Shown in pieces: positions 25,455-43,287 of a stretch of DNA of 43,720 nucleotides. This DNA is from Paludibacteraceae bacterium (GTDB taxonomy: Bacteria; Bacteroidota; Bacteroidia; Bacteroidales; Paludibacteraceae). The notes beneath the pieces were generated by a model. It saw only the letters and a program-made list of their open reading frames with translations. It was not told the origin of the DNA and did not search any database. Each line of letters opens with the position of its first letter. Within the stretch, counting starts at the first letter, position 1. The stretch spans positions 1-43,720 of the forward strand of contig JAGBZD010000011.1 of NCBI GenBank assembly GCA_017628395.1, given 5' to 3'. A program made the position numbers and the translations under genes.

Positions 25455-28400
25455 CTATATTTTATCTCCACTGATCTTGCTGAGTAAATGCAGTGCTCCA
25501 CCAATGGTCTTCACTTGTTGCACCACCATATAGCGTTTGCCTGTGGGCTTTCCTTCGCGATTCTTATCTTCTACCAGGCGGCAACGCTCTGCACGCGAAC
25601 ATGCATATTGTACTAACTTTCCAAAAATCTCAGATTGGAAATACTTAGGATTATGATTCACGAAATACATGGACATGCGTTCCTGTTTCAAAATCACTTT
25701 CTCTATACCCATTTTGCAGCACAACCATCTCAACCGCACCACATTCAGCAACTGCTCTGCCTCCTCTGGCAACGGACCAAAACGGTCAATCAATCGCTTC
25801 TGATATTCGAGAAGAGCATCTTCGCCGCTCAGACTATCCAATTCGCGATACAGAGTGATGCGTTCGGAGATATTTTCGACATATGTAGGCGGGAACGAGA
25901 GGGGTAGGTCGCTTTCCAGCAAACTATCACTGCACCAGGTCTTGCGAGGTGTAGAATTGTTTAGAGTCGTGTAGAGTGGTGTAGCATTGTCCGAAAGGGA
26001 TGATTCCATCATTTCCTCACGGATTTCTTCTACGGCTTCGTTGAGTATGCGCTGATAGGTGTCATAGCCCAAGTCTGAAATGAATCCACTTTGTTCTGCA
26101 CCCAGCATATTTCCCGCACCGCGGATGTCTAAGTCTTGCATTGCCAGTTGGAAACCAGAACCCAACTCCGCAAAAGTGGTCAGTGCGTCTAGTCGGCGGC
26201 GTGCATCGCTGGTGAGCAGTTCCTTGTCTGGTGTAACCAAATAGCAATACGCTTTGCGGTTGGAGCGACCTACGCGTCCGCGCAGTTGGTGCAAGTCAGA
26301 CAAACCATAGTGCTGTGCCGAATGGATGATAATCGTATTCACATTCGGAATATCCACACCCGATTCGATGATGGTGGTGGAGATGAGAATATCGTAGTCG
26401 TAGTTGATAAATGCCTCTAATCGCTCTTCCATCTCGCCCGCGGGCATCTGTCCGTGTGCAATCACAGTGCGTGCTTCGGGACACAGGCGCAGGATACGAT
26501 TCTCTATGCGGGGCAACATCTCAATGCGGTTGCAAACCACATATACTTGTCCGTTGCGCTGCATCTCCAACTGAATAGCCTCTTTGATGATGTCTTCATC
26601 ATCGAGCGTAATGCACTCTGTCATAACGGGATAGCGATTGGGCGGTGGGGTGTTGATGATGCTCAAGTCGCGTGCACCAAGCAATGAGAACTGCAAGGTA
26701 CGCGGTATAGGTGTGGCGGTCAGTGTCAGTACATCTACATTGGTGCGCAGCGATTTGAGTTTCTCTTTGACAGCCACGCCAAACTTCTGCTCTTCGTCAA
26801 TAATGAGCAGTCCGAGGTCTTTCCACAATACCTGTTTGCCCACCAGCTTGTGTGTACCCACCAGTATGTCTATTTTTCCGTCTTTGAGGTCGGCAAGCAG
26901 TTCTTTCACTTGCTTTGGCGATTTGCTTCGGCTGAGGTATTCAATCCGCACAGGGAAATCGCGGAAGCGTTCGCGGAAGGTGTTGTAGTGCTGCATGGCG
27001 AGTACGGTGGTAGGCACCAGTACTGCCACTTGCTTGCCGTCGGTAGCCGCTTTGAAGGCTGCGCGCATCGCCACTTCAGTCTTACCAAAACCCACATCGC
27101 CGCAGACCAATCGATCCATAGGCATGGGGCTTTCCATATCGTGCTTGATGTCCAAGGTGGCTTTCGCTTGGTCGGGGGTGTCTTCGTAGAAGAAGGACGC
27201 TTCCAACTCGTGCTGCATATAGCCGTCTGGCGAGTAGGCAAAGCCCTGTTGCTGCTTGCGGGTGGCGTATAGACGGATGAGGTCGCGGGCGATGTCTTTC
27301 ACCTTGTCCTTGGTGCGCTCTTTCATGCGCTCCCATGCGCCTGAACCCAAACGCGAGATGGTAGGTTCGCTGCCTTCGCGCCCCTTGTATTTGGAGATGC
27401 GGTGTAGGTTGTGAATGCTAACAAAGATGGTATCGCCACCGCGATAGGTAAGTTTGATACTCTCTTGTGGGCGACCATAGAAATTGGTGGTTACCAGTCC
27501 CGCAAACTGACCAATACCGTGGTCCACATGTACTACATAATCACCCACTTGAAGTTGGTTGATTTCTTTGAGCGTGATGATGGCTTTGCCTCGTCTGGCG
27601 TTCTCCGAACGGAGTGTGACGCGGTGGTAGCGTTCGAATATCTGATGATCGGTGTAGCAACATATCTTGGCTGCGTTGTCCACAAAGCCTGCGTGCAAGG
27701 TCTGGTTGATAGGTATGAATGTGATGCCCGATTCTTTATCCTCGAAGATGGCTCGCAGACGGTCGGTTTGCTTCACTTGTTCGGCGAGGATATATACCTT
27801 ATAGCCATCGCGTATGCGCGCGATGAGGTCATCCGTGAGAATATCGAAGTTCTTATTGAAGGTGGGTTGAGGCTGCGTGTCAAAATCCAGCGTGTCGTAG
27901 GTGGGGAAACTGCTTTTTTGCCCCAACTCGATGGTGGTGTAGCATGGTGAAGCGTTGGTTAGCGTGGTGGAGAGTGGTGTAGCGTTGTTTAGTTTGTATT
28001 GTACGAGGTTAAAGTCGTTGCTTACCCACAGGGTTTTGTCGGACAGATATTCCGTGATGTATGTGGATTCCTCTTGGGTGTTAGCGCCTACAATATCAAT
28101 GGACGAGAGGCGCGTCTGCGAGAGTTGTGTTTCGATGTCAAACTCGCGAATAGAGTCCACCTCGTCGCCAAAGAAATCCACGCGATAGGGATTGTCGTGC
28201 GCAAAGCTGTATATATCCACTATTCCTCCTCGTACGGCGAACTGCCCTGGCTCATAAACAAAATCCACGCGTTGGAAATGCAGTTCGAGCAGCTGTTTGA
28301 TGAGTAGGGATTGTGCTATCTCTTGTTCGGTGCGCAGGCTAATCGTTTGTTGCTGTAGCGTGTTAGGGTGGGGAACCGATTCGGCTAATGCTTCAGGATA

Positions 28401-28808
28401 GGTGACAATGATTACCCTATATCCATTACCCATTAGCTCATTAGAGCGTCCCTTACCTGCTACCAGTGCGCTCAGCACTTCGGTGCGTTGCACGAGCATG
28501 GCTTCGTCGGTTTTTTGGCGTCGGCGATGGGAAGAAGGAAAGAAATACACACCTTGATCGCCACTTAGCGTGCGGAAATCGGCATACATATATTGTGCGT
28601 CATCGGCGTTGTCTAATACAACGAGGATGGGACGACATTGCTTGGCTGCTACCAACTGCTGGTGCACCGCATGGAGTAATAAACTTTGGGATGAGGCAAA
28701 GAGATTCCTGAGTAAAAAATGTTTTTCGCACTTTTTACTTAATTCTTTTGCCAATACATTCACCTCTGGATGTAGGGCAAATAATTGCTCTAACTCCCCA
28801 ATTTGCAT
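25455..28808 (-). CDS. mfd: Transcription-repair coupling factor Mfd
   Basis: This 1117-residue ATPase removes RNA polymerase stalled at DNA lesions and recruits UvrA. The N-terminal UvrB-like region is followed by the CarD-like RNAP-interaction domain (LQVGDYVVHVDHGIGQFAGL). The RecG-like motor has Walker A GFGKTEVAMRA near residue 570, DEEQKFG near 670 and QLRGRVGRS near 843. The C-terminal D7 domain completes normal full length. The ATG at 28808 (MQIGELEQLFALHPEV) matches the family; the longer frame starts inside the promoter. Two in-frame decamer-repeat insertions encode NNATPLSTTLTNASP-type and NATPLYTTLNNSTP segments near residues 272-290 and 940-953. Confidence 0.95.
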   Translation of the reverse strand: MQIGELEQLFALHPEVNVLAKELSKKCEKHFLLRNLFASSQSLLLHAVHQQLVAAKQCRPILVVLDNADDAQYMYADFRTLSGDQGVYFFPSSHRRRQKTDEAMLVQRTEVLSALVAGKGRSNELMGNGYRVIIVTYPEALAESVPHPNTLQQQTISLRTEQEIAQSLLIKQLLELHFQRVDFVYEPGQFAVRGGIVDIYSFAHDNPYRVDFFGDEVDSIREFDIETQLSQTRLSSIDIVGANTQEESTYITEYLSDKTLWVSNDFNLVQYKLNNATPLSTTLTNASPCYTTIELGQKSSFPTYDTLDFDTQPQPTFNKNFDILTDDLIARIRDGYKVYILAEQVKQTDRLRAIFEDKESGITFIPINQTLHAGFVDNAAKICCYTDHQIFERYHRVTLRSENARRGKAIITLKEINQLQVGDYVVHVDHGIGQFAGLVTTNFYGRPQESIKLTYRGGDTIFVSIHNLHRISKYKGREGSEPTISRLGSGAWERMKERTKDKVKDIARDLIRLYATRKQQQGFAYSPDGYMQHELEASFFYEDTPDQAKATLDIKHDMESPMPMDRLVCGDVGFGKTEVAMRAAFKAATDGKQVAVLVPTTVLAMQHYNTFRERFRDFPVRIEYLSRSKSPKQVKELLADLKDGKIDILVGTHKLVGKQVLWKDLGLLIIDEEQKFGVAVKEKLKSLRTNVDVLTLTATPIPRTLQFSLLGARDLSIINTPPPNRYPVMTECITLDDEDIIKEAIQLEMQRNGQVYVVCNRIEMLPRIENRILRLCPEARTVIAHGQMPAGEMEERLEAFINYDYDILISTTIIESGVDIPNVNTIIIHSAQHYGLSDLHQLRGRVGRSNRKAYCYLVTPDKELLTSDARRRLDALTTFAELGSGFQLAMQDLDIRGAGNMLGAEQSGFISDLGYDTYQRILNEAVEEIREEMMESSLSDNATPLYTTLNNSTPRKTWCSDSLLESDLPLSFPPTYVENISERITLYRELDSLSGEDALLEYQKRLIDRFGPLPEEAEQLLNVVRLRWLCCKMGIEKVILKQERMSMYFVNHNPKYFQSEIFGKLVQYACSRAERCRLVEDKNREGKPTGKRYMVVQQVKTIGGALHLLSKISGDKI
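25949..25990. repeat. Decamer (GTGTAGNNTN) repeat inside mfd, 3' copy
   Basis: Units GTGTAGAATT, GTTTAGAGTC, GTGTAGAGTG and GTGTAGCATT plus GT. On the coding (minus) strand it stays open and encodes NATPLYTTLNNSTP, in the linker before the D7 domain. Confidence 0.85.
27937..27992. repeat. Decamer (GTGTAGNNTN) repeat inside mfd, 5' copy
   Basis: Units GTGTAGCATG, GTGAAGCGTT, GGTTAGCGTG, GTGGAGAGTG and GTGTAGCGTT plus GTTTAG. It encodes KLNNATPLSTTLTNASPCYT in the N-terminal region. It is more diverged than the intergenic copy, as expected for an older insertion. Confidence 0.82.
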
Positions 28809-28818
28809 AAATCGGCTG

Positions 28819-28826
28819 CAAAGGTA
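28819..28826 (-). promoter_or_regulatory. -7 box of mfd
   Basis: TACCTTTG on the minus strand ends 10 nt before the ATG at 28808, leaving only a few nucleotides of leader. No TTTG stands at the -33 position (GGTA there). Confidence 0.6.
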
Positions 28827-28865
28827 CAAAAATAAATTGAAATATTTACCATAAATTGCAAAAAT

Positions 28866-28897
28866 CTTGCTCAATTCAAAATATTTCTGTAATTTTG
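28866..28897 (+). promoter_or_regulatory. Promoter of the pseudouridine synthase gene
   Basis: -33 CTTG (28866-28869), a 20-bp spacer, -7 TAATTTTG (28890-28897). It is divergent from mfd; the gene starts at 28967. Confidence 0.72.
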
Positions 28898-28966
28898 CAC
28901 GGAATTCGAAATGATAGGATATATACGAAAGTGTAAAATCATAAAATTGTCACATTGCAAATCAAC

Positions 28967-29686
28967 ATGACTGTACTATACGAAGATAATCATATAATAG
29001 CTGTCAGCAAGACTTGCCACGAGATTGTACAAGGCGATAAGACAGGCGATACGCCGCTCTCTGAGATGGTGAAAGCGTATATCAAAGAGAAATACCAAAA
29101 GCCGGGGGAAGTTTTTCTGGGTGTTACGCATCGTCTTGACCGTCCTACTACGGGTGTGGTACTCTTTGCGCGCACCAGCAAAGCATTGACGCGTCTCAAT
29201 GCTATGTTTCAGTCGCACGAACAGATACGCAAGACCTATTGGGCGATTGTGGAGAGAACGGAAAACGGAAAGGTGAAAACGGAAAACGGAGAGGTGAAAA
29301 CGGAAAACGGAGAGGCAATAAAGCTCGAACACTATCTATGGCGCAATGAGAAACAGAATAAGTCCTTTATTGTTAAGCAAGGAACGAAGGATGCCAAGCG
29401 TGCTGTTCTCTCCTATAGAGCTATTGCTCAAAGCGACCGCTATACGTTGTTGGAAGTAAATCTTGAGACAGGTCGCCATCATCAGATTCGTTGCCAACTA
29501 TCAGCCATAGGTTCTCCTATCAAGGGAGACCTCAAATATGGAGCTAAACGCAGTAACCCAGATGGTGGAATAGCATTGCATGCCAGAAAAATCGAATTTA
29601 TTCACCCTGTCAGCAAACAGCCAATTTCGATTACTGCTCCTGTGCCTGAAGATACGCTGTGGAAACTGTTGGAAGAACAAATATAA
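28967..29686 (+). CDS. RluA-family RNA pseudouridine synthase
   Basis: This 239-residue enzyme converts uridine to pseudouridine in rRNA or tRNA. Motif I HRLDRPTTG near residue 54 carries the catalytic Asp. LLEVNLETGRHHQIRCQLS and GDLKYGAKR are the downstream family motifs. It has no S4 domain, so it is a short RluA/RluC-like form and the target site cannot be told. I start at ATG 28967; an in-frame TTG at 28955 is less likely. A 21-bp-period repeat (29256-29313) inserts ENGKVKTENGEVKTENGEA in a loop before EHYLWRNEKQNKS, where homologues are normally short. Confidence 0.9.
   Translation: MTVLYEDNHIIAVSKTCHEIVQGDKTGDTPLSEMVKAYIKEKYQKPGEVFLGVTHRLDRPTTGVVLFARTSKALTRLNAMFQSHEQIRKTYWAIVERTENGKVKTENGEVKTENGEAIKLEHYLWRNEKQNKSFIVKQGTKDAKRAVLSYRAIAQSDRYTLLEVNLETGRHHQIRCQLSAIGSPIKGDLKYGAKRSNPDGGIALHARKIEFIHPVSKQPISITAPVPEDTLWKLLEEQI
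29256..29313 (+). repeat. 21-bp-period in-frame repeat in the pseudouridine synthase
   Basis: Nearly three copies of a 21-bp unit built on GGTGAAAACGGAAAACGG encode repeated VKTENGE. The period is a multiple of three, so the frame is kept. Confidence 0.88.
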
Positions 29687-29710
29687 ATGTTTTACAACAT
29701 ATATAGACCC

Positions 29711-29749
29711 AAAATCGCACTTTGCATTTGCATAAGTGCGATTTTTTTT
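29711..29749 (+). terminator. Terminator overlapping the iorA promoter
   Basis: Perfect 12-bp stem (29711-29722 with 29734-29745), 11-nt loop, then a T-run to 29749. The loop contains the -33 TTTG of the next promoter, and the T-run is its spacer. Confidence 0.85.
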
Positions 29750-29758
29750 GTAACTTTG
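29727..29758 (+). promoter_or_regulatory. Promoter of the iorAB operon
   Basis: -33 TTTG (29727-29730), a 20-bp spacer, -7 TAACTTTG (29751-29758). It is embedded in the upstream terminator; the gene starts at 29818. Confidence 0.82.
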
Positions 29759-29817
29759 CACCATAAAAATTTAACCTTAAAAAAATATTAACTATTCATT
29801 GTTAATTACTCACTACC

Positions 29818-31473: not shown

Positions 31474-31478
31474 TTAAT

Positions 31479-31553
31479 CTCCCACGGATTACACGGATGT
31501 ACACGGATACACCTAACATCAGTGCAAATCAGTGTTATCAGTGGGAAATAAAA
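31479..31553 (+). repeat. CACGGAT hairpin repeat, unit 1
   Basis: CTCCCACGGATTACACGGAT at the start can pair imperfectly with ATCAGTGTTATCAGTGGGA at the end around a variable centre. It begins 5 nt after the iorA stop. Confidence 0.87.
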
Positions 31554-31556
31554 TAA

Positions 31557-31631
31557 CTCCCACGGATTACACGGAGCAACACGGATACACCTAACATCAG
31601 TGCAAATCAGTGCAATCAGTGGGAAATAAAA
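31557..31631 (+). repeat. CACGGAT hairpin repeat, unit 2
   Basis: Direct tandem neighbour of unit 1 with a near-identical centre (ACACCTAACATCAGTGCAAA). It ends AGTGGGAAATAAA 10 nt before the iorB start. Confidence 0.87.
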
Positions 31632-31641
31632 AACACATACG

Positions 31642-32217
31642 ATGAAACGCGATATTATTTTAGCAGGCGTAGGTGGACAAGGTATCCTCTCTATTGCCAC
31701 TGTCATAGGTGATGCAGCCCTCAACGAGGGACTTTATCTCAAGCAAGCCGAAGTACACGGTATGAGCCAACGAGGCGGCGATGTGCAATCCAACCTCCGT
31801 TTGTCTTCTGCCCCCATTTACTCGGATCTTATCCCCAAGGGTGGGGCAGATATTATTATCTCACTCGAACCAATGGAGGCGCTCCGTTATCTGCCTTATT
31901 TGAAAGAAGATGGCTGGATTGTCACCAGCAGCAAACCCTTTGTGAATATCCCTAATTATCCTGATATAGAGGAGGTAATCAAGCATGTTGAGGCTATTCC
32001 TCATCATGTGCTATTGGATGTGGAGACATTGGCAAAAGAAGCAGGCGCACCACTGCAAGCAGCCAACATGGTGCTGCTTGGAGCTGCTATTCCAATGTTA
32101 GGCATTGACCATGACAAGATTGTAGAGGGCGTGAAGCGCATCTTTGCTCGCAAAGGCGAAGCCATTGTCGCTGCCAACCTCGCCGCCATTGAAGCAGGCT
32201 ACAACCATTCCCACTAA
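31642..32217 (+). CDS. iorB: Indolepyruvate oxidoreductase beta subunit
   Basis: This 191-residue protein is the gamma-domain-like partner of IorA. The N-terminus DIILAGVGGQGILSIATVIG is the diagnostic glycine-rich motif, and HGMSQRGGDVQSNLRLS follows. Length and order are normal for iorB. It is separated from iorA by two hairpin repeats over 168 bp, rather than the tight junction usual in other genomes. It should be co-transcribed from the promoter at 29727. Confidence 0.92.
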   Translation: MKRDIILAGVGGQGILSIATVIGDAALNEGLYLKQAEVHGMSQRGGDVQSNLRLSSAPIYSDLIPKGGADIIISLEPMEALRYLPYLKEDGWIVTSSKPFVNIPNYPDIEEVIKHVEAIPHHVLLDVETLAKEAGAPLQAANMVLLGAAIPMLGIDHDKIVEGVKRIFARKGEAIVAANLAAIEAGYNHSH

Positions 32218-32242
32218 TTGTGTGGATTTTGAAGATAAATAC

Positions 32243-32306
32243 CTCCCACAGAGTTCACGGATGTACACGGATACCCGATACATCAGTGCAATCAGTGGGA
32301 AATAAA
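32243..32306 (+). repeat. CACGGAT hairpin repeat, unit 3
   Basis: Shorter unit with CTCCCACAGAGTTCACGGAT and ATCAGTGCAATCAGTGGGA arms. Confidence 0.83.
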
Positions 32307-32309
32307 CCC

Positions 32310-32387
32310 CTCCCACGGATTACACGGATCAACACGGATACACCTAACATCAGTGTAAATCAGTGTTATCAGTGGGAAATAAAAAAA
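32310..32387 (+). repeat. CACGGAT hairpin repeat, unit 4
   Basis: CTCCCACGGATTACACGGAT start, ATCAGTGTTATCAGTGGGA end. The centre is shared with unit 1. Confidence 0.86.
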
Positions 32388-32390
32388 TAC

Positions 32391-32467
32391 CTCCCACGGA
32401 TTACACGGATGCCCACGGATTCCAAGATACCTCAGTGTAAATCAGTGTTATCAGTGGGAAATAAAAA
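32391..32467 (+). repeat. CACGGAT hairpin repeat, unit 5
   Basis: Same arms as unit 4. The centre differs (GCCCACGGATTCCAAGATAC). Confidence 0.85.
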
Positions 32468-32472
32468 AACAC

Positions 32473-32566
32473 CTCCCACAGATCTCACGGATGTACACGG
32501 ATACGCCGAATCCATTTGTTCTGATTAGTTCCAATCAGTGAAAATCAGTGAGATTAGTGGGAAATA
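32473..32566 (+). repeat. CACGGAT hairpin repeat, unit 6
   Basis: Longer, more diverged unit with CTCCCACAGATCTCACGGAT and ATCAGTGAGATTAGTGGGA arms. The arm changes are matched: GATCTCAC on the left corresponds to GTGAGATT on the right. It ends 11 nt before the aminotransferase start. Confidence 0.83.
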
Positions 32567-32576
32567 CAGAAAAATT

Positions 32577-33914: not shown

Positions 33915-36431
33915 CTACTTGAGCATCACATCAAATTTCAGATTGATCATTCTGCCCGTCAGGTAGTTTGGACTTGCCCATTGCATGCCATTGGCGGCTG
34001 TCACCCAATAGTAACTATTCACATTCTTCCATCCAATGAGGTTGAAAATATCCAGTTGTATGCTCCAACTATCCACATGTTTCGACTTCTTCATCCATTT
34101 GTCGGTAGCCGCACTAAAAGTACGCGTTGCACCAATATCAATGCGGCGGTAGTCGCTCATATGACCTAAATAGCGCATGTCCTCTCTGCGTGGATAGCCG
34201 AACGGAAGACCCTCGCTCCAAATAAACTTGAGGTGAATCTTGTATTGTGGGAAGCGTGGTACATAGTCTTGAAAATACATAGTTAGGTTGTAGCGTTGCT
34301 CTTGTGGGGTGGGAATCCAATCGGTGTTGTGTAGCGTGGTTGGGTGTTGTGTGGCGTTGTCCACAAATCGCATACGGCTGCGCATGGTGGAGAAACTAAT
34401 CCACGAGTCAGCACCTGGCACCAGTTCGCCCATGAGTTTCAAATCCAGTCCGATGGTGTAGCCCTCGCTGTCATTGATACCCGAGTAGCGCACGCGCACA
34501 TTGTCCACTGTGTAACTCTCCATGCGGTCGATGAGTTTGCCATATGCTTCGGCAGTGAACTTGAATGGGCGTCCCCAAGCACGGAAATAGTAGTCGGTAC
34601 CCAATACCAGTTGCCACGAGCGTTGTGCGCGCAAACGGTCGTTGAGGTGAATACGATTCACGCCTCCTTCATCTGCTATCACTTGTCTGAGTTCCTTATA
34701 GAACGGTGCTTGATAGTATAGTCCAGTAGCCACGCGGAAAGTGAAGTCGCGTTTCCAGCCAGGCATCCACACAACGCTCACGCGTGGCGAAGGCAATACC
34801 TCATTGGTATAGCTCCACCAGTTGAGGCGCATGCCCGCCGTCAGCAATACATCGCCTTGTGCGGTTGTCCAACGATAGGTGTCTTGTGCGTATGCCTGAA
34901 CGCGACCGTTAATCATATGCGATGTACCCTTCAGCGCGTAGTAGAGCGCCATCTCTTGGCTCAGGTTAGGCAGACTATAGCCCATCGAATCACGCCATTC
35001 CCATTCGTTGATGCGGTCGTTGATCATTTCCACTTGTCCGCTCACGCCCCATTGTAGGGTGTTCTCGCCTTTTTTCCATTCGCCCTTATGCGCCAGCGTC
35101 AGCATGCCAGCTTGCAGGGTGTTGCGTGCGTGTTCGTGGAACTTGCCCGTACCTAACACACTACCATTGGGTACATTGCCATTGATGGTTTCGCCGTTGG
35201 GGGTGTTAGACGAACTGCCGTCAGCAGGTTTCTCGCTCAGCACATATTCGCTGCTGATGTCAAAAGTCTCTTGTTCGTGGGTATAGAAACCGCTCAGGTC
35301 GAAACCCAAACGGATGTTTTTGCGGAGTTGATGGGTCGCACTCAGTGCCACAAAAGCGGTGCGGAACATGTCTTTCTCTTGTCCCTCGTACCAAATGGTT
35401 TTGTTCAGTGCTTGCTGCATCGTACCAAAACTGCTACTTACCGAGTCTGGCACAAACTCGTAGCTGTTTTGCGAGAAGTTACCCAGCAGCGTTATCTCCC
35501 ATGCCTTTCGCCTTCTCACCTCATCGCCTAAATTCCAAGTCATCTGTGTCTGATAGTCGATGAAGTTGGGTTTGTAGTTGCCCGCTGTTTCGAGTGCGCC
35601 CAGCAGATAGCGCGAAGTCTTGTATCGGATGCTATGCATTTGGCTTTGTGTGCCATTGCCCCAACCGATATAAGCACTTGCACCCAGCAAACTCATGTTG
35701 AGGCGCGATTCCAATCGGGTAGGGCGCTTGTAGCGGATATCCAGTACGGACGACATCTTGTCGCCATACTTAGCGTCGAAGCCGCCTGCGGAGAAATCCA
35801 CATTCTCCACCATGTCGGTATTCACGAAACTCAGTCCCTCCTGTTGTCCGCTGCGAATGAGTAGTGGGCGGTGTACCTCTATGCCATTGACATACACCGA
35901 GTTCTCATCAAAACTACCACCGCGCACATTGTACTGGCTACTCATCTCATTATTTTGTCTTACGCCCGCAAAAGTGATGAGCAGGTTCTCAATACCGCCA
36001 CCCGTAGCGTCAGGCATCAGTCGTGCGGCACCAATGTCCACACGGTCCATGGTGTTGGTCTGCCGCTGAATGGCGCGCACGGTGATTTCGCCCAATAGTT
36101 CTTCGTTGGTGGGGAGAATGACATTTATGCCAATCACTTCTCGCTCGGTATATACTTGTTGGCGAATTGTTTCGTAGCCAATCATCGAATATACGAGTGT
36201 AAGTGTATCTTGTAAATCTACAAACAACTCATAGTAGCCGTTTTGATTAGTCGTTGTGCCAATTGTAGTGTTTTCTTCGATATATACATTGGCTAATTCT
36301 ATACTGCGATTGTCAGAATCCAGTACATAGCCAAAGACTCGTACTTCTTTTCCATACAAGTTACTGGTCAGCAATAGACATGCCAACACGCCCCATAGGC
36401 GTTTTATAATATGTTGTAGGGTATTTTGCAT
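33915..36431 (-). CDS. TonB-dependent receptor with carboxypeptidase-regulatory-like domain
   Basis: This 838-residue outer-membrane protein has a signal peptide (LWGVLACLLLTSNLYG), a CarboxypepD_reg-like domain at about residues 25-110 (VFGYVLDSDNRSIELANVYI) and a plug domain (ARLMPDATGGGIENLLITFAGVR...QYNVRGGSFDENSVYVNGIE). A 22-strand-type barrel follows, ending NLKFDVMLK. It imports an unknown substrate with TonB energy; no SusD partner is adjacent, so it need not be a glycan receptor. ATG 36431 lies only about 11 nt after the promoter's -7 box. A decamer repeat is inserted in frame (34329-34360), and a low-complexity stretch SSNTPNGETINGNVPNGS lies near 35160-35220. Confidence 0.9.
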   Translation of the reverse strand: MQNTLQHIIKRLWGVLACLLLTSNLYGKEVRVFGYVLDSDNRSIELANVYIEENTTIGTTTNQNGYYELFVDLQDTLTLVYSMIGYETIRQQVYTEREVIGINVILPTNEELLGEITVRAIQRQTNTMDRVDIGAARLMPDATGGGIENLLITFAGVRQNNEMSSQYNVRGGSFDENSVYVNGIEVHRPLLIRSGQQEGLSFVNTDMVENVDFSAGGFDAKYGDKMSSVLDIRYKRPTRLESRLNMSLLGASAYIGWGNGTQSQMHSIRYKTSRYLLGALETAGNYKPNFIDYQTQMTWNLGDEVRRRKAWEITLLGNFSQNSYEFVPDSVSSSFGTMQQALNKTIWYEGQEKDMFRTAFVALSATHQLRKNIRLGFDLSGFYTHEQETFDISSEYVLSEKPADGSSSNTPNGETINGNVPNGSVLGTGKFHEHARNTLQAGMLTLAHKGEWKKGENTLQWGVSGQVEMINDRINEWEWRDSMGYSLPNLSQEMALYYALKGTSHMINGRVQAYAQDTYRWTTAQGDVLLTAGMRLNWWSYTNEVLPSPRVSVVWMPGWKRDFTFRVATGLYYQAPFYKELRQVIADEGGVNRIHLNDRLRAQRSWQLVLGTDYYFRAWGRPFKFTAEAYGKLIDRMESYTVDNVRVRYSGINDSEGYTIGLDLKLMGELVPGADSWISFSTMRSRMRFVDNATQHPTTLHNTDWIPTPQEQRYNLTMYFQDYVPRFPQYKIHLKFIWSEGLPFGYPRREDMRYLGHMSDYRRIDIGATRTFSAATDKWMKKSKHVDSWSIQLDIFNLIGWKNVNSYYWVTAANGMQWASPNYLTGRMINLKFDVMLK
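34329..34360. repeat. Decamer (GTGTAGNNTN) repeat inside the TonB receptor gene
   Basis: Units GTGTAGCGTG, GTTGGGTGTT and GTGTGGCGTT plus GT. On the coding strand it encodes DNATQHPTTLHNT, near residue 690-700 of the barrel, probably a loop. It is diverged. Confidence 0.72.
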
Positions 36432-36441
36432 AATCAACTCG

Positions 36442-36749: not shown

Positions 36750-39308
36750 ATGATTGATAACGACAGAATTATTCCTGTAAAGATTGACGAGGAAATGCGA
36801 ACCTCGTACATCGACTATTCGATGAGTGTAATCGTGGCGCGTGCGTTGCCTGATGTGCGCGATGGTTTTAAGCCAGTGCACCGCCGTGTGCTCTTCGGAA
36901 TGAACGAGCTGGGAAACACCAGCGATAAGCCAACCAAGAAATCCGCTCGTATCGTGGGTGAGGTAATGGGTAAGTACCACCCTCACGGTGATAGCAGTAT
37001 CTATGGCACATTGGTGCGTATGGCACAGCCATGGAATATGCGTGGCGTGTTGGTAGATGGTCAAGGTAACTTTGGCTCTATTGACGGTGATGGCGCAGCT
37101 GCTATGCGTTACACCGAGGCACGCCTCTCTAAACTCGCCGAGGAGATGCTCCGCGATATAGAGAAAGATACCGTGGATATGCAACTAAACTTCGACGACT
37201 CGCTGCGCGAGCCTGTGGTGTTGCCTTGCCGTTTCCCCAATTTGTTGGTGAATGGTGCCAGCGGTATTGCGGTAGGTATGGCTACGAATATGCCAACCCA
37301 CAACTTGGGCGAAGTGATTGATGGTTGTGTTGCCTATGTGAAGAATGCTGTAGCACGCGTGGAGAACCCAGAAGTGGAGCCAATCACCGTGGCAGAACTG
37401 ATGGAGCATATCAAGGCACCAGATTTCCCAACAGGTGGTACAATCTATGGCTACCAAGGCGTGCGTGATGCCTACGAGACTGGTCGCGGTCGTATTATTA
37501 TTCGTTCCAAAGCGGAGATTGAGACCGAGGATAACGGTCGCGAGCGCATTGTGATTGGCGAGTTGCCATACGGCGTGGTGAAGTCTGACCTCGTGAAGAA
37601 TATCGCAGACCTTGTGAACGACAAGAAGATTGAGGGTATCTCGGGTATTAGCGACCAATCGAAACGCGATGTGCGCATTATTATTGAGATTAAGCGCGAC
37701 GCGAATGCGCAAGTAGTATTGAATAAACTCTACAAATATACCGCGTTGCAATCCAGCTTCTCTGTGAATAGTATTGCATTGGTGAAAGGTCGTCCACAAC
37801 TGCTGAATTTGCACGATATGGTGGCAAACTTTATTGAGCACCGTATGGAAGTGGTGGTTCGCCGCACGAAGTATGAGTTGAAGAAGGCTGAGGAGCGTGC
37901 ACATATCTTGGAGGGATTGATCATTGCCGTAGATAATATCGACGAGGTGGTGAAGATTATCCGTGCAAGCCGCACTCCTGCCGAAGCACAGTCCAATTTG
38001 GAAGCACGCTTCAACCTCGATAACTTGCAATCAAAAGCTATTGTAGATATGCGCTTGTCGCAACTCACTGGCTTGCGTATCGACGAGTTGAAAGAGGAAT
38101 ATGCGAAGTTGCAAGAGCTTATCCAACACCTCAACGCTTTGCTCGCCAGCGAGGTGATGCGCTACGAAGTGATTGAGAACGAACTCGTTGAAATCAAAGA
38201 GAAATATGCCGATGAGCGTCGCACACGCATCATCAAGATGGCTACCGAGTTCAACCCAGAGGATATGTATGCCGACGACGATATGGTCATCACCATCTCT
38301 CACCTTGGATATATCAAGCGTACCCCATTGGCTGATTTCCGTCAGCAAGGTCGTGGTGGCGTAGGTGCAAAAGCCAGCGCTGCGCGCGATGAGGACTTCA
38401 TTGAGTATGTTCACCAAGCGAACATGCACTCTACGATGATGTTCTTCACCGAGCAAGGTCGCCTTTATTGGACCAAGGTATATGAATTGCCAGAGGGTAA
38501 CCGCCAATCAAAGGGTCGTGCGTTGCAAAACATGATCAATATCCAAAAGGGTGACAAGGTTTGCGCGTTTATCCATGTGAAGAACCTCAACGATATGGAG
38601 TATGTGCAAAACCACTACCTCATCTTTGCTACCAAGGATGGTTTGATGAAGAAGACTACACTCGAATCCTACAGCCGTCCACGCGCCAACGGTATCATTG
38701 CTCTTGGTCTGCGTGAGGGGGATCGCCTGATTCGCGTGACGCTCACCGATGGCAATAGCCAAATGTTGGTAGCTTCCTACAATGGTAAGGTGGTTCGCTT
38801 CCCAGAGGATACCGTTCGCCCAATGGGTCGTACAGCTACAGGTGTGCGTGCTATCAAACTGGATGAGGACGGTCAAGATCGCGTGATTGGCATGATTTGT
38901 GTGGAGGAGGGTAGCAAGGAGTCTGTTCTCGTGATTTCGGAGAAGGGCTTCGGTAAGCGTACCGACCTCGACGACGAGAATGGTGAGCCAATCTATCGTA
39001 TCACTAACCGCGGCGGTAAGGGTGTGAAGACTATGAACCTCACCGATAAGACAGGTAATCTGATTGGTCTTGAGGCAGTTACAGACGAGCAAGATCTCAT
39101 GCTTATCACCAAGTCGGGTACCGCTATCCGTATGGCAATGGATACTATCCGCGTGATGGGTCGTGCTACCCAAGGTGTGAAACTCATCGAACTCCAAAAG
39201 CGCAACGATACGCTCATGTTCGGCTGCGTAGTTCCAAAAGAGGAAGTAGAAGAGGCTACTGAAGCACCCGAGGCAACCGCAGAGGAGGCAACTACCGCAG
39301 AAGAGTAA
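36750..39308 (+). CDS. gyrA: DNA gyrase subunit A
   Basis: This 852-residue breakage-reunion subunit introduces negative supercoils with GyrB. The N-terminus has YIDYSMSVIVARALPDVRDG. The catalytic tyrosine lies in AAAMRYTEARL near residue 119. A GyrA-box-like QGRGGVG near residue 531 supports gyrase rather than topoisomerase IV. The quinolone-region residues before it (HPHGDSSIYGTLVRMAQPWN) are wild-type-like with Ser and Ile. The C-terminal beta-pinwheel ends in an acidic tail rich in EEATEAPEATAEE. It is probably co-transcribed with the TPR protein, from which it is separated by one CACGGAT hairpin repeat. Confidence 0.97.
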   Translation: MIDNDRIIPVKIDEEMRTSYIDYSMSVIVARALPDVRDGFKPVHRRVLFGMNELGNTSDKPTKKSARIVGEVMGKYHPHGDSSIYGTLVRMAQPWNMRGVLVDGQGNFGSIDGDGAAAMRYTEARLSKLAEEMLRDIEKDTVDMQLNFDDSLREPVVLPCRFPNLLVNGASGIAVGMATNMPTHNLGEVIDGCVAYVKNAVARVENPEVEPITVAELMEHIKAPDFPTGGTIYGYQGVRDAYETGRGRIIIRSKAEIETEDNGRERIVIGELPYGVVKSDLVKNIADLVNDKKIEGISGISDQSKRDVRIIIEIKRDANAQVVLNKLYKYTALQSSFSVNSIALVKGRPQLLNLHDMVANFIEHRMEVVVRRTKYELKKAEERAHILEGLIIAVDNIDEVVKIIRASRTPAEAQSNLEARFNLDNLQSKAIVDMRLSQLTGLRIDELKEEYAKLQELIQHLNALLASEVMRYEVIENELVEIKEKYADERRTRIIKMATEFNPEDMYADDDMVITISHLGYIKRTPLADFRQQGRGGVGAKASAARDEDFIEYVHQANMHSTMMFFTEQGRLYWTKVYELPEGNRQSKGRALQNMINIQKGDKVCAFIHVKNLNDMEYVQNHYLIFATKDGLMKKTTLESYSRPRANGIIALGLREGDRLIRVTLTDGNSQMLVASYNGKVVRFPEDTVRPMGRTATGVRAIKLDEDGQDRVIGMICVEEGSKESVLVISEKGFGKRTDLDDENGEPIYRITNRGGKGVKTMNLTDKTGNLIGLEAVTDEQDLMLITKSGTAIRMAMDTIRVMGRATQGVKLIELQKRNDTLMFGCVVPKEEVEEATEAPEATAEEATTAEE

Positions 39309-39316
39309 CCAATAAA

Positions 39317-39384
39317 CTCCCACTGTGCTCACGGATGAATACGGATAATAATCGGTGGAAATCAGTGTAATCAGTGGGAAATAA
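39317..39384 (+). repeat. CACGGAT hairpin repeat, unit 7
   Basis: CTCCCACTGTGCTCACGGAT and ATCAGTGTAATCAGTGGGA arms. It begins 8 nt after the gyrA stop and ends AATAATAAG before the TPR gene. Isolated from the 31-32 kb cluster by about 7 kb. Confidence 0.83.
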
Positions 39385-39419
39385 TAAGAATGTATAGAAC
39401 TTTTAAAACTGTTACAAAT

Positions 39420-40670
39420 ATGAAAAAATCAATTTTTCTTGCAGCCCTTGTGCTGATAAGCGCAGGCTGCTTTGCACAAAAAGCGAATGTGAGTAAAGCG
39501 CGTGGTTTGGCTGATGCAGAGACTCCAGATTATGCAGGTGCTCGCGCTGCTATCGAAGAGGCATTGCAAAACGATGAAACCAAAGATCAGGCCAATACTT
39601 GGTATGTGGCAGGTTTGATTGGATATAAGGAGTTTTCTGCAAATAACTTGAAGCGCCAAATGGGACAAAATATTGATATTGACCAATGGGGTGCTGCTGT
39701 ATTTGAATCGCTTAAGTATTGGGATAAAGCATTTGAGTTGTCGCAAATACCTACTTATGACAAAAAAGGTAAAGCAAAATACGATACTCGTACTCCAAAG
39801 AATATTCTTCCTAAAGTAGTTGAGTATTTCCAATTCCAACCATTGATTGCTGCGGGTTTCAATGCTTATGAGGCAAATAATCCAGCATTGGCATACGAAA
39901 TGTTTATCGCTCATGTCAATATTCCTGAGCTGCAAGTATTGCAAGAGAATCCTGCAGAGTTAGAGAAATTGCTCCGTGATACCAGTTATTACACATGTTT
40001 GTACTACGCAGGTCGTTTTGCATATGAGGCAAAAATGTACGATGAGGCAATAGCCGCACTTGATCGTATGAATAGCGAGCATGCGAACGCAAATGCTTTG
40101 CGAAAAGAAGTGATCTTCGCGAACGAGTACATCTATCAAATCTATATCGAGCAACAAGATACAGCCAAAGCAGTGGATTTTATTCAAAACTGTATTCAAT
40201 TGTTCCCAGAGGAAGCTTGGTTTATGCAAAACCTGATAAATCTCTATATCAATTCTGGTCAAGAAGAGAAAGCTATTGAGTATTTGGATTTGGCTATTGC
40301 TCGCGAACCAAATGTAGGTCAATACTACAATTCTAAGGGTTCTATTCTTGCTCGTATTGGTCGTTTTGAGGAATCGTTCAAGGCATTTGAGCAAGCTATT
40401 GCTATTGAGCCAAATAATGCGCTTTTCTTGGAGACATTGGGCTTTGCGTATGTAGATCTTGGTAACAAACTCAATGATGATGCTGCGTATTTGGATAACA
40501 AGGCATATGCTAAAGCAAAGGTTGAGATTGATGCTGCTTTCCAAAAGGCCTTGCCATACTTCGAAAAGGCATACGAGTTGGAGCCAGACAACAATGATTA
40601 CAAGCGCTCACTTCGTTCGCTCTATTACCGTCTTGGTATGAACGACAAGTACGAAGCTCTCGCAGACTAA
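39420..40670 (+). CDS. Secreted or periplasmic tetratricopeptide-repeat protein
   Basis: This 416-residue protein has a signal peptide (MKKSIFLAALVLISAGCFAQ). At least four TPR-like helix pairs are visible, the clearest being EKAIEYLDLAIAREP, YYNSKGSILARIGRFEESFK and AFEQAIAIEPNN. TPRs are protein-binding scaffolds; no catalytic motif is seen. An in-frame ATG at 39390 exists, but the signal peptide begins at 39420. The Cys in SAGCFAQ could be read as a weak lipobox, though signal peptidase I cleavage after FAQ-type Ala is more likely. Its stop overlaps the ruvX start (TAATG). Confidence 0.8.
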   Translation: MKKSIFLAALVLISAGCFAQKANVSKARGLADAETPDYAGARAAIEEALQNDETKDQANTWYVAGLIGYKEFSANNLKRQMGQNIDIDQWGAAVFESLKYWDKAFELSQIPTYDKKGKAKYDTRTPKNILPKVVEYFQFQPLIAAGFNAYEANNPALAYEMFIAHVNIPELQVLQENPAELEKLLRDTSYYTCLYYAGRFAYEAKMYDEAIAALDRMNSEHANANALRKEVIFANEYIYQIYIEQQDTAKAVDFIQNCIQLFPEEAWFMQNLINLYINSGQEEKAIEYLDLAIAREPNVGQYYNSKGSILARIGRFEESFKAFEQAIAIEPNNALFLETLGFAYVDLGNKLNDDAAYLDNKAYAKAKVEIDAAFQKALPYFEKAYELEPDNNDYKRSLRSLYYRLGMNDKYEALAD

Positions 40671-41083
40671 TGGGAAGAATACTTGCGATAGACTTTGGTC
40701 GCAAACGAACAGGATTAGCCGTTACGGACATGCTCCGTATAACGGCTAATCCGCTTGTTACTATCCCTACACATACGCTTGAAAACTGGCTCAAAGACTA
40801 CTTCGCAAAGGAACAAGTGGATGAGGTAGTGATAGGTCATCCTTATCAAATGAATGGCGAGGACTCCGAATCCATGCAATACATCCAACCTTTTATCAAT
40901 CGCTTTCGCAAAGTATTCCCGAATATGCCGCTAAAGGAGTATGACGAGCGTTTCACTTCGGTGATGGCTCACCAAGCTATGATTGCAGGGGGAATGAAGA
41001 AGAGCCAACGACAAGACAAATCGGTGGTGGATAAATTGGCTGCGTGTATCATATTGGAAGGTTATTTGGATAGTATTCGTTAG
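40670..41083 (+). CDS. ruvX: RuvX/YqgF family Holliday-junction resolvase-like protein
   Basis: This 137-residue RNase H-fold protein has the N-terminal Asp motif ILAIDFGRKRTGLAVTD, then VIGHPYQMNGEDS, YDERFTSVMAHQAM and DKSVVDKLAACIILEGYL (C-terminal acidic residues). The family acts in 16S rRNA 5'-end maturation and may resolve Holliday junctions. It overlaps the TPR gene by one base and precedes def by 65 bp. Confidence 0.93.
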   Translation: MGRILAIDFGRKRTGLAVTDMLRITANPLVTIPTHTLENWLKDYFAKEQVDEVVIGHPYQMNGEDSESMQYIQPFINRFRKVFPNMPLKEYDERFTSVMAHQAMIAGGMKKSQRQDKSVVDKLAACIILEGYLDSIR

Positions 41084-41148
41084 CGGATATACGCACGAAT
41101 CCTTATCCTTTACGCTATAAATAGTAAATTGTCAAATAGTAAATTACA

Positions 41149-41697
41149 ATGATTTTACCTATATATTTATATGGTCAACCTGTGTTGCGAAAGCCCACAG
41201 AAGATATTACCCCTGACTCTTTGGATCTCAAGCAGTTGCTCACGGATATGTGGGAAACACTTGCTGTTGCCGAAGGTTGTGGATTAGCTGCTCCGCAGAT
41301 TGGCAAGGCAATCCGTCTCTTTATCGTGGATGGTACCGAACTGGCAGAGGATTATCCTGAGTGTCAGGATTTTAAGAAGGTGTTTATCAATCCTGAGATT
41401 ATTGAAGAGAGCGAGGAAGATGTAACATTCTCGGAGGGTTGTCTCTCGCTTCCTGGTATCTCAGAGAATGTGATTCGTCCAGCCAGCATCACTATTCGCT
41501 ATATGGATGAGAACTTCACCGAACATACAGAGACCTACGATGGCTTTGCGGCACGCATCATCCAGCATGAGTATGACCACTTGGAAGGACATGTGTTCAC
41601 GGATCGAATCTCGCCTATTCGCCGTCAGTTCGTGAAGACTAAACTCACCAATATTGCCAAAGGCAAAGTGGCTGCCCGCTATCGTACAAAACGATGA
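41149..41697 (+). CDS. def: Peptide deformylase
   Basis: This 182-residue metalloenzyme removes the N-formyl group from nascent proteins. All three motifs are present: GCGLAAPQIG near residue 43, EGCLSLPG near 95 (metal-binding Cys) and QHEYDHLEG near 140 (two His and the catalytic Glu). It overlaps mntP by 4 bp (ATGA). Confidence 0.96.
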   Translation: MILPIYLYGQPVLRKPTEDITPDSLDLKQLLTDMWETLAVAEGCGLAAPQIGKAIRLFIVDGTELAEDYPECQDFKKVFINPEIIEESEEDVTFSEGCLSLPGISENVIRPASITIRYMDENFTEHTETYDGFAARIIQHEYDHLEGHVFTDRISPIRRQFVKTKLTNIAKGKVAARYRTKR

Positions 41698-42269
41698 GTA
41701 TCATCACGATAATATTGCTCGCTATTGGCTTAGCCATGGATTGTTTTGCGGTGTCGGTCTGCAAGGGATTGACTTCGCCTCATGGCTATGTGCCTCGGTA
41801 TGTCAAGCCTATGCTGATGGCATTGCTGTTTGGCGTATTTCATGCGGGCATGCCTTTGATTGGCTATTTCGCGGGTAGTTTGTTTGCTGCGTTCTTCGAG
41901 CGTTTTGCCCCATGGATAGCCCTTGCATTACTTGGATTTATAGGTGGGAAAATGATTTACGACTCGCTCAAAGGCGATGATGATAATGCGCACTTAGCCG
42001 ATTTTTCTGTTCTTGGTTTACTATCGTTGGCGTTTGCTACTTCAATGGATACATTGGCTACGGGCGTAATTTTTATTCCTCATCCAGAGGTGCTTTGGAT
42101 TGCAGTGGGAGTGATTGCAGCGACCTGTTTCCTGTTTTCCATGACGGGCTTTGTAATCGGTCATCTGGTTGGTACTCGCCTACGATGGAATGTAACCCTT
42201 CTTGGAGGGGTGATTCTTATTCTGATAGGTGTGAAAATTTTCCTCGAAGGAGTTATCTTGCACAATTAG
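41694..42269 (+). CDS. mntP: Manganese efflux pump MntP
   Basis: This 191-residue inner-membrane protein has six predicted helices, AIGLAMDCFAVSVCKGL (conserved Asp) in helix 1 and ATSMDTLATGV in the second half, the inverted-repeat signature of MntP. It exports Mn2+. In many bacteria mntP is controlled by a Mn riboswitch or MntR. Here it is translationally coupled to def with no room for its own leader, so that control seems absent. A terminator follows at 42341. Confidence 0.92.
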   Translation: MSIITIILLAIGLAMDCFAVSVCKGLTSPHGYVPRYVKPMLMALLFGVFHAGMPLIGYFAGSLFAAFFERFAPWIALALLGFIGGKMIYDSLKGDDDNAHLADFSVLGLLSLAFATSMDTLATGVIFIPHPEVLWIAVGVIAATCFLFSMTGFVIGHLVGTRLRWNVTLLGGVILILIGVKIFLEGVILHN

Positions 42270-42340
42270 TGTATTGAAATTATTAAAAACAATTATTGTC
42301 AATTTAGGGGGCAATTATCGTTCATTCAAGGATATCACAC

Positions 42341-42373
42341 AAACCGAGCGGCATGGAAATACCGCTCGGTTTT
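42341..42373 (+). terminator. Terminator after mntP
   Basis: Perfect 11-bp stem AAACCGAGCGG / CCGCTCGGTTT with a 10-nt loop and a following T-run. Confidence 0.88.
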
Positions 42374-42507
42374 GGTTTGCTATATGGGGTTGCGATTAGT
42401 GGATTTCTGCACCCATGACGGACAACCATGGAGAGGGGGCTATTGAATGGGCAAATCACGATTGGATAATAGGAAAATAAGCGAAAAACAATAATTTTCA
42501 ATTATTA

Positions 42508-42539
42508 TTTGCGTATGTCAAAAAAAAGCAGTACCTTTG
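42508..42539 (+). promoter_or_regulatory. Promoter of the V-type ATPase operon
   Basis: -33 TTTG (42508-42511), 20-bp spacer CGTATGTCAAAAAAAAGCAG, -7 TACCTTTG (42532-42539). Leader of about 75 nt to the subunit E start. Confidence 0.85.
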
Positions 42540-42619
42540 TAGCGATTATGGGCTTTTGCGTGCAAAAGATCTGAAAAAGGCAAAAAAGAAGCGAATAAAT
42601 AATAAAAAAGATATACAAA

Positions 42620-43204
42620 ATGAATCTATCAGAATTGACCAACAAGATCTACGCAGAAGGCGTAGAGAAAGGTAATGCCGAGGCAGCAGCTATTGTAGCG
42701 AAAGCACAAGAGCAAGCAGCTGCTATCGTGGCTAAAGCCGAGAAAGAGGCAGCTGAGAAATTAGCTGCTGCAGAAGCAAAATTGGCAGAGATGGACAAGA
42801 ACACTCGTGCCGAGTTGAAACTCTTTGCAGAGCAAAGCGTAAGCGCACTCAAAACAGAGGTAACCAACCTCCTGACCGAGCAGGTGGCTGCTGACAGCGT
42901 GAAAGCTGCTACCGCTGACGCAAAATTCATGCAAGGCGTAATCGCTAAGCTCGCTGAGCAAATGGCGAAAGATGGCGATGTAACTATTGAGGCAAAAGAT
43001 GCAGAAGCACTGAAGAAATACTTTGCTGCTAACGCAAAAGGTTTGCTCGAGAAAGGTGTGAAGATCAACGAGGTGAAGGGTATCAAGACCGACTTCGCTA
43101 TCGTACCTGAGAAAGGTGGCTACAAGTTGAACTTCGGCGAGAAGGAGTTTGTAGAGTACTTTAAAGAGTTCTTGCGTCCACAATTGATCGAAGTGCTGTT
43201 TTAA
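42620..43204 (+). CDS. V-type ATP synthase/ATPase subunit E
   Basis: This 194-residue peripheral-stalk subunit has a long charged alanine-rich coiled coil in residues 1-70 (EAAAIVAKAQEQAAAIVAKA) and a compact C-terminal domain, as in V/A-type subunit E. It links the catalytic head to the membrane sector. In Bacteroidota this operon usually runs E, a DUF2764 protein, A, B, D, I, K; the next gene fits that order. V-type enzymes in these bacteria are often Na+-coupled, but that cannot be judged here. Confidence 0.88.
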   Translation: MNLSELTNKIYAEGVEKGNAEAAAIVAKAQEQAAAIVAKAEKEAAEKLAAAEAKLAEMDKNTRAELKLFAEQSVSALKTEVTNLLTEQVAADSVKAATADAKFMQGVIAKLAEQMAKDGDVTIEAKDAEALKKYFAANAKGLLEKGVKINEVKGIKTDFAIVPEKGGYKLNFGEKEFVEYFKEFLRPQLIEVLF

Positions 43205-43206
43205 TT

Positions 43207-43287
43207 GTGTAGAATGGTGTAGAATTGTGTAGAGTAGTGTAGAATTGTTACACAACGCTAAACAACACTACACAACGCTAAACAATG
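43207..43287. repeat. Palindromic decamer (GTGTAGNNTN) repeat between V-ATPase genes
   Basis: Four direct decamers (GTGTAGAATG, GTGTAGAATT, GTGTAGAGTA, GTGTAGAATT) are followed by four in the opposite orientation (TACACAACGC, TAAACAACAC, TACACAACGC, TAAACAATG). The whole can fold as an imperfect hairpin of about 40 bp. It fills the spacer to the next start codon. Confidence 0.9.

What the first reader, a model, noticed from the sequence alone, without database searches (positions are those of the whole stretch)
25949..43287. A 10-bp-period repeat family invades coding sequence in frame (mfd twice, TonB receptor) as well as a V-ATPase spacer
Seen directly: the decamer GTGTAGNNTN runs in tandem at 25949-25990 and 27937-27992 (mfd), 34329-34360 (TonB receptor) and 43207-43287 (intergenic, with an inverted half). 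In all three genes the coding strand reads the complement, giving related peptides (NATPLYTTLNNSTP, NNATPLSTTLTNASP, DNATQHPTTLHNT). Ten is not a multiple of three, so persistence of an open, Thr/Asn-rich frame implies selection on orientation and phase. It recalls the Rickettsia palindromic elements that insert in protein linkers, but the unit and phylum differ. Mechanism and mobility are inference.
Basis: partly seen in the sequence, partly recalled or inferred. Interest (0 to 1): 0.8.

Follow-up and report, generated by a model that had tools for sequence, protein, structure and literature searches.

The report
Ten-base repeats invading gut-bacterium genes
A group of uncultured gut bacteria carries dozens of copies of a ten-base DNA repeat that sits not only between genes but also in frame inside loops of housekeeping proteins, which suggests that working enzymes can absorb a surprising amount of stray repeat DNA.

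Summary
The window's genome (by its relatives a Paludibacteraceae-type Bacteroidales) has 66 exact GTGTAGNNTNGTGTAG pairs against 0 for the reversed control; 15 of 178 genus genomes hold 4 or more. I called 144 arrays in 93 loci: 72 inside predicted genes, with mfd, ispE, rsmH, ileS, folC and mtaB among the hosts. In genes the stop-free strand (CTACAC) is nearly always the coding one (57 of 61 stand-alone arrays). Length differences between orthologous genic sites are multiples of three in 55 of 58 unique pairs, against 7 of 24 in spacers. The receptor insert is in G000 only, of 10 genomes. Fourteen pairs of arrays form 76-115-bp palindromes, always GTGTAG arm first; one such element sits in unrelated genes at 88/101 identity. 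Phase is not selected: the CTACAC strand is open in at least two frames for 123 of 144 arrays. Other species of the genus carry other short-period repeats in the same Mfd loops. It works like Rickettsia palindromic elements and TAACTGA heptamer arrays, but is neither. How it spreads is unproven.

The parts
25455..28874 (-). mfd (transcription-repair coupling factor), host gene of two arrays
   Evidence: NCBIfam TIGR00580 949.9 bits, cut-off 800; Pfam TRCF, CarD_TRCF_RID, UvrB_inter
25949..25990 (+). 4-unit GTGTAG array; coding strand reads CTACAC, peptide NATPLYTTLNNSTP; lies at gaps in the alignment to E. coli Mfd (6x26), just before the TRCF domain
   Evidence: array also in G025 and CALZHO, a related shorter one in G014, other sequence in G078, G063, G082
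27937..27992 (+). 6-unit degenerate array (2 exact units); peptide NNATPLSTTLTNASP; in a loop that is variable among the 30 genus Mfds aligned
33915..36437 (-). TonB-dependent receptor (CarboxypepD_reg-like and Plug domains), host gene of the third array
   Evidence: Pfam
34329..34360 (+). degenerate 3-unit array, species-specific insert (net +21 bp; by eye about 37 bp in place of 16)
   Evidence: absent from 9 of 9 relatives, among them G131 with a 90% identical protein
43207..43246 (+). left (GTGTAG) arm of the palindromic element, 4 units, begins 2 nt after the stop codon of the subunit E-like gene
43248..43287 (-). right (CTACAC/CTAAAC) arm, 4 units called, last unit ends 9 nt before the ATG at 43293
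   Evidence: 89-bp difference from G025 and G063, which read TAATGGG here; one unit (10 bp) shorter than in JAFVTU
29257..29315 (.). AACGGAA heptamer / 21-bp array inside a pseudouridine synthase ORF: another short-period array of the same general kind
   Evidence: TRF; PseudoU_synth_2
31479..31631 (.). two tandem copies of a second palindromic element type (CACGGATNN)n...(NNATCAGTG)n upstream of a POR gene
32235..32562 (.). further copies of the CACGGAT/ATCAGTG element downstream of the same gene

Best explanation
The GTGTAG arrays are a dispersed, apparently non-autonomous repeat family that expanded in one clade of a Paludibacteraceae-type Bacteroidales genus. They exist as single arrays of 3-13 ten-base units (some steps of 11) and as 76-115-bp palindromes of two facing arrays. 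Shown: the unit recurs at dozens of loci, one composite element occurs in unrelated genes, orthologous sites are empty in some relatives, arrays differ by whole units between relatives, and coding copies keep the frame. Inferred: short pieces are copied into new sites by a replacement-type event (template switching or gap repair, since some inserts take the place of target bases), then grow or shrink by slippage. Most insertions die; survivors lie in spacers, often just before a start codon, or in tolerant loops. In loops they survive almost only on the stop-free strand, with a net length change divisible by three. No benefit to the host proteins is needed. The family is one of many short-period array types in this genus.
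For: Abundance: 66 against 0 control. Mobility: an element of about 100 bp is 88/101 identical between a VapE-like gene (C21) and an unrelated gene (C97), and 86/104 between C21 and its VapE-like paralogue C78; 97-bp elements 91.8% identical in two different spacers of JAFYWK. Empty sites: receptor array in 1 of 10 genomes; spacer element absent from G025 and G063; first ispE site 36 bp shorter in both relatives compared. Unit-wise change: 10 bp between G000 and JAFVTU at 43206, 40 bp between CALZHO and JAFYWK. Selection for an open frame: 55 of 58 unique genic pairs with a length difference differ by a multiple of three, against 7 of 24 in spacers, Fisher p 1.8e-9; CTAAAC in the stop phase 0 of 56 units, other phases 18 of 187, spacers 43 of 208; 57 CTACAC-coding against 4 GTGTAG-coding stand-alone genic arrays, and 3 of those 4 have 11-bp steps. 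Six of 7 array-bearing proteins scanned reach a curated NCBIfam cut-off: mfd, ispE, rsmH, ileS, mtaB, folC.
Against: No mobilising enzyme was identified; only Y1 transposases were sought. The non-repeat core shared by C21, C78 and C97 was found at these 3 places only, of 93 loci scanned, so most copies share nothing but the repeat. No target-site duplication was evident by eye in the 24 alignments printed; no systematic search was made. Some sites look like replacement, so the first step could be local conversion. Three of 58 genic pairs break the rule of three; one of these is probably a leader (3 nt from a predicted start), two are unexplained. The 144 arrays include orthologues and the pairs share ancestry, so the p values are descriptive. 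Gene calls are from my own codon-score script, and a few 'genic' arrays lie within a few nt of a predicted gene end.
Confidence: 0.72

Rival explanations
1. They are REP/MITE-type elements moved in trans by a transposase, for example a RAYT (Y1 transposase) that recognises GTAG next to a hairpin.
For: GTAG lies in every exact unit; palindromes of about 100 bp; intragenic GTAG REPs, also in DNA-repair genes, are known (PMC3733652, section 15 read).
Against: PF01797 finds nothing in G000. Of the 15 genomes with 4 or more pairs, 3 have any Y1 match and 2 reach the cut-off, against 68 and 48 of 178 overall; drafts may lack the gene. GTAG is repeated in each unit instead of tagging one end. Other transposases were not sought.
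Confidence: 0.2
2. They are regulatory elements: CTACAC arrays before start codons tune translation in a phylum without Shine-Dalgarno pairing, and copies in genes are by-products.
For: 28 of 72 non-genic arrays have a predicted start within 60 nt downstream on the CTACAC strand, 8 on the other strand (p 0.0012), often 1-11 nt away; Bacteroidetes mRNAs lack SD sequences and initiation is tuned by structure and certain bases (PMC6847099, start of abstract seen in the listing); TAACTGA arrays sit likewise (PMC4679880).
Against: Half of the arrays are inside genes; G025 and G063 do without the element at 43203, and other repeats fill the same spacer in G078 and G082.
Confidence: 0.25
3. Each array arose locally by slippage from chance GTGTAG-like sequence; nothing moves.
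For: The genus is rich in short arrays of many units (375 in 1,224 kb sampled), so a general array-making process exists; most GTGTAG copies share only the repeat.
Against: The same unit with the same variable positions recurs at dozens of loci in one clade; a 100-bp element with a non-repeat core (CTTCCRCAGAAAA) is shared by unrelated genes.
Confidence: 0.12
4. The arrays bind a DNA protein once per helical turn (10/11-bp steps average near 10.5).
For: Steps of 10 with some of 11, but my caller allowed only 9, 10 and 11, so this is weak.
Against: Pure 10-bp arrays of 7 to 12 units occur (for example L160, L189), and other array types of the genus have 7- or 8-bp units; not tested biochemically.
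Confidence: 0.07

Closest known systems
Rickettsia palindromic elements (RPE; as reviewed in PMC2229807, passages read)
   Same: 100-bp-scale palindromes found in spacers and in frame inside conserved protein genes, tolerated by the proteins
   Different: RPE are 105-146-bp stem-loop elements, not described there with a ten-base tandem unit; other phylum; here most inserts are single arrays, not whole palindromes
GTAG REPs / REPtrons (PMC3733652, section 15 and passages read)
   Same: short palindromic repeats with GTAG, also inside genes of DNA repair, tRNA synthetases and others
   Different: REPs are 20-40-bp hairpins tagged at one end by GTAG and often linked to RAYT transposases; here GTAG is in each unit and no Y1 link is seen
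TAACTGA heptamer direct repeats (Beggiatoaceae, cyanobacteria, five Bacteroidetes including Paludibacter; PMC4679880, abstract, sections 12, 15, 25 and passages read)
   Same: short tandem arrays just upstream of start codons; stop-rich strand excluded from the inside of ORFs; indels in whole units; dispersal unknown
   Different: 7-bp unit of another sequence; there mostly intergenic (24 sets in or overlapping ORFs, 13 of them over a stop codon), here half of the arrays called are inside genes; palindromes here
Cyanobacterial STRR heptanucleotide repeats (recalled; papers only listed, not read)
   Same: dispersed short tandem arrays of unknown function
   Different: 7-bp units; I recall no coding invasion of this kind
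PARCEL (PMC2996958, abstract read)
   Same: palindromic repeats that are coding and dispersed
   Different: a 25-residue coding unit, often in membrane-targeted ORFs without assigned function

Membership tests
Rickettsia palindromic element | in-frame inserts in conserved protein genes | tested here: met
   6 of 7 array-bearing proteins scanned reach a curated NCBIfam cut-off; 55 of 58 frame-preserving length differences
Rickettsia palindromic element | palindrome of about 105-146 bp as the inserted unit | tested here: not met
   14 palindrome pairs of 76-115 bp among 144 arrays; 116 arrays stand alone
GTAG REP | 20-40-bp stem-loop tagged at one end by GTAG | tested here: not met
   GTAG recurs in every exact 10-bp unit
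GTAG REP | association with a RAYT (Y1) transposase | tested here: not met
   no PF01797 match in G000; 2 of 15 array-rich genomes over cut-off against 48 of 178 overall; draft genomes
TAACTGA heptamer arrays | unit TAACTGA in tandem | tested here: not met
   two-unit TAACTGA in 35 of 178 genus genomes, at most 4 matches per genome, 1 in G000
TAACTGA heptamer arrays | array shortly upstream of start codons, one orientation | tested here: met
   28 against 8 of 72 non-genic arrays within 60 nt of a predicted start
MITE | terminal inverted repeats of a parent transposon and target-site duplication | tested here: inconclusive
   some copies palindromic; no duplication evident by eye in 24 alignments; parent element not sought beyond Y1
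Known structured RNA | match to an Rfam family at the window's arrays | tested here: not met
   only a tRNA and DUF805b, elsewhere in the window, reach gathering scores

The most novel reading that the evidence does not exclude
The whole genus runs a still-active process that makes and spreads many different short-period arrays (7-11-bp units) into the same tolerant spots: leaders and the hypervariable loops of housekeeping proteins. Loops such as those of Mfd act as docking sites where one species carries GTGTAG decamers, another heptamers, another something else, so that a sizeable part of proteome loop sequence is recycled repeat DNA read in whatever frame it lands.
Probability: 0.4. Interest if true: 0.85.

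Novelty: new variant of a known kind. Interest (0 to 1): 0.7.

Why it matters
Short repeats with units that are not multiples of three are usually thought to be kept out of bacterial housekeeping genes. Here a gut clade, and with other units its whole genus, tolerates such arrays inside conserved enzymes and seems to keep gaining them. That makes testable how proteins acquire new loops from non-coding DNA, why the stop-free strand alone survives, and what machinery copies short arrays, a question left open for the TAACTGA repeats (PMC4679880).

Tried and rejected
Y1/RAYT transposase as mobiliser: not supported. TAACTGA membership: rejected. Rfam family: none at the window's arrays. Helical-phasing reading: considered, weak. 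Selection on phase: rejected. Structure prediction was not run: loci from the genome search and the fetch from genomes, which would give the alignment depth, are not named among the tool's allowed inputs. Literature: Paludibacteraceae with 'tandem repeat' found 0 papers; the listings (9 of 9; 15 of 41; 5 of 5; 6 of 6; 5 of 5; 6 of 6; 8 of 705) showed no report of this family by title and start of abstract. The library is open-access only, so this is weak evidence of novelty. Dropped rows: of 96 stretches found by the genome-contig scan, 80 were loaded and 62 used; 11 non-Bacteroidales and 7 other Bacteroidales loci were set aside (all 18 were looked at). Of 61 genus genomes with Mfd matches, 30 loci were fetched and aligned.
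Full report
Observation. The receptor array is degenerate in sequence but real by comparison with homologues. The two-unit pattern GTGTAGNNTNGTGTAG occurs 66 times in the window's own genome (2.41 Mb, 129 contigs, 81% complete) and 0 times when read backwards. In the window, 13 near matches stand against 0.63 expected; one of the 13 lies outside the arrays.

Distribution. Of 178 genomes of the genus, 23 have at least one exact pair; 15 have four or more and account for nearly all (G126 107, G131 84, G000 66, G182 39, G103 38, G119 35 lead). Of 24 genomes from other families of the order, 2 have a match, one each. The one genome-contig scan (three exact units) found 96 stretches; most of the 80 loaded are MAGs titled Paludibacteraceae or Bacteroidales bacterium, many from ruminant hindgut, with single hits scattered over other phyla. 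Equal contig lengths suggest G126 = RGIG5388, G131 = RGIG7483, G103 = SIG114, G119 = RGIG3996, G014 = RGIG7219. That the window's genome belongs to this group is inferred from the shared genus and from DNA similarity.

Anatomy. I called 144 arrays of three or more units in 93 loci, 952 kb in all. Orthologues in different species are counted separately, so these are not independent events. My caller allowed steps of 9, 10 and 11 bp; 10 dominates, with some 11. Fourteen pairs of arrays face each other within 80 bp; all 14 have the order GTGTAG arm, then CTACAC arm. They span 76 to 115 bp. By eye the unit varies mainly at positions 3, 7, 8 and 10.

Genes. By my codon-score gene calls, 72 arrays are inside genes, 19 overlap gene edges and 53 lie in spacers, in loci that are 86.5% coding. 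So spacers are enriched, but half the arrays are genic; a few of these lie within a few nt of a predicted gene end. Of 20 ORFs that hold or adjoin arrays in G000, 18 have a Pfam domain at E up to 1e-5. NCBIfam puts mfd, ispE, rsmH, ileS and mtaB over equivalog cut-offs and folC over its subfamily cut-off; the MurC/Mpl-like protein stays below its cut-offs. Against solved structures, the rsmH arrays lie in a stretch of 65 residues where 1wg8 has 26. The first ispE array meets a 7-residue gap in 1uek; the second lies at or past the end of that alignment. The distal mfd array meets gaps in 6x26 just before the TRCF domain; the other mfd site lies in a part that did not align.

Frame and strand. 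GTGTAG on the coding strand brings TAG into nearly every frame: 115 of 144 arrays have no open frame on that strand, and 29 have one. The CTACAC strand is open in three frames for 77, two for 46, one for 14 and none for 7. Stand-alone genic arrays are CTACAC-coding in 57 of 61; of the 4 others, 3 contain 11-bp steps, and a 10+11 period of 21 bp can avoid the stops. The unit CTAAAC would put TAA in frame in one phase: it is found there in 0 of 56 units, in 16 of 84 and 2 of 103 in the other phases, and in 43 of 208 spacer units. Thus strand and frame are under purifying selection, but phase of entry is free.

Orthologous sites. For 79 of the 144 arrays a relative's site could be placed by its flanks. 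After removing reciprocal comparisons there are 104 site pairs; of genic pairs with a length difference 55 of 58 differ by a multiple of three, of spacer pairs 7 of 24, of edge pairs 4 of 4. Alignments (24 of 152 comparisons printed, chosen by me) show a whole-element difference (43203-43287, 89 bp, absent from G025 and G063), gain or loss of whole units (10 bp; 40 bp), and many sites where the array stands in place of other sequence, including other repeats, in the relative. The receptor insert is in G000 only, of 10 genomes, and by eye puts about 37 bp in place of 16.

Mobility. An element of about 100 bp with the non-repeat core CTTCCRCAGAAAA is shared by two VapE-like genes (C21, C78, paralogues) and an unrelated gene (C97): 88 of 101 positions identical between C21 and C97. 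C97 has no Pfam hit; that it looks like a membrane flippase is my reading. The core was found at these 3 places only in the 93 loci. Two spacers in JAFYWK hold 97-bp elements 91.8% identical.

Leaders. Of 72 non-genic arrays, 28 have a predicted start within 60 nt downstream on the CTACAC strand, often at 1-11 nt, and 8 on the other strand. This recalls the TAACTGA arrays of Beggiatoaceae (PMC4679880).

Wider picture. Both Mfd sites are variable loops in the 30 genus Mfds that I aligned. By eye several carry other periodic DNA there: heptamers of CTAAAC/CTCAAC type in G076 (also found by TRF), TTGGCTATTAGAGA in G078, CTATGGCTC in G035. TRF finds 375 arrays with 6-24-bp units in 1,224 kb of 16 genus genomes (30.6 per 100 kb; part of this sample was chosen around GTGTAG arrays) and 26 in 323 kb of 11 genomes of other families (8.0 per 100 kb; single genomes range from 0 to 29.5); one Markov-shuffled replicate gave 6 and 5. 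In the seven genomes sampled without regard to GTGTAG (98 arrays in 373 kb), 20 arrays lie inside genes and have a unit that is not a multiple of three, against 2 in the 323 kb outside the genus (the G076 contigs were chosen because earlier searches had hit them, and one holds mfd).

Mechanism. Shown: recurrence at unrelated loci, unit-wise change, strand and frame selection. Inferred: copying of short pieces by template switching or gap repair, then slippage. A Y1 transposase is not linked; other enzymes were not searched. I hold the general account at 0.72 and the template-switching step alone at about 0.35.

Comparison. The behaviour is that of Rickettsia palindromic elements and intragenic REPs, with the array form of the TAACTGA repeats, but a defining feature of each fails (see membership test). 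I file it as a new variant of a known kind: small dispersed repeats tolerated inside genes.

Noticed in passing
window 31479-31631 and 32235-32562: Several tandem palindromic elements of about 70-80 bp, (CACGGATNN)n facing (NNATCAGTG)n, flank a POR gene; same architecture as the GTGTAG element in another sequence.
   Followed up: partly
window 214-249, 10265-10297, 21676-21714, 25407-25435: Four 11-bp-period arrays with different units; units AGCCGAAGATA and CCGTTAGCATT recur elsewhere in the genome.
   Followed up: partly
L031:8047, L032:12546, L036:12114, L053:7349: Nearly identical 54-bp arrays of the 11-mer CCGATACATAA at four loci, perhaps part of a mobile element.
   Followed up: no
L148 (JAGBVG010000066.1, titled Alistipes sp.): Carries the array of G000 contig C33 letter for letter over the stretch compared by eye; perhaps a misbinned contig.
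   Followed up: no
L165 (CALZHO010000184.1) 2537-2573: A third array in mfd of a close relative, at a place where the window's mfd has none.
   Followed up: partly
window 22338-22372: Rfam RF02914 (DUF805b) cis-regulatory motif, E 4.1e-9.
   Followed up: no
L264:10240-10562 (genome of another family, G060): A cluster of five 10-bp-period arrays (GGAATGAGTC and AGAGGAAATT types) close together; unrelated in sequence.
   Followed up: no
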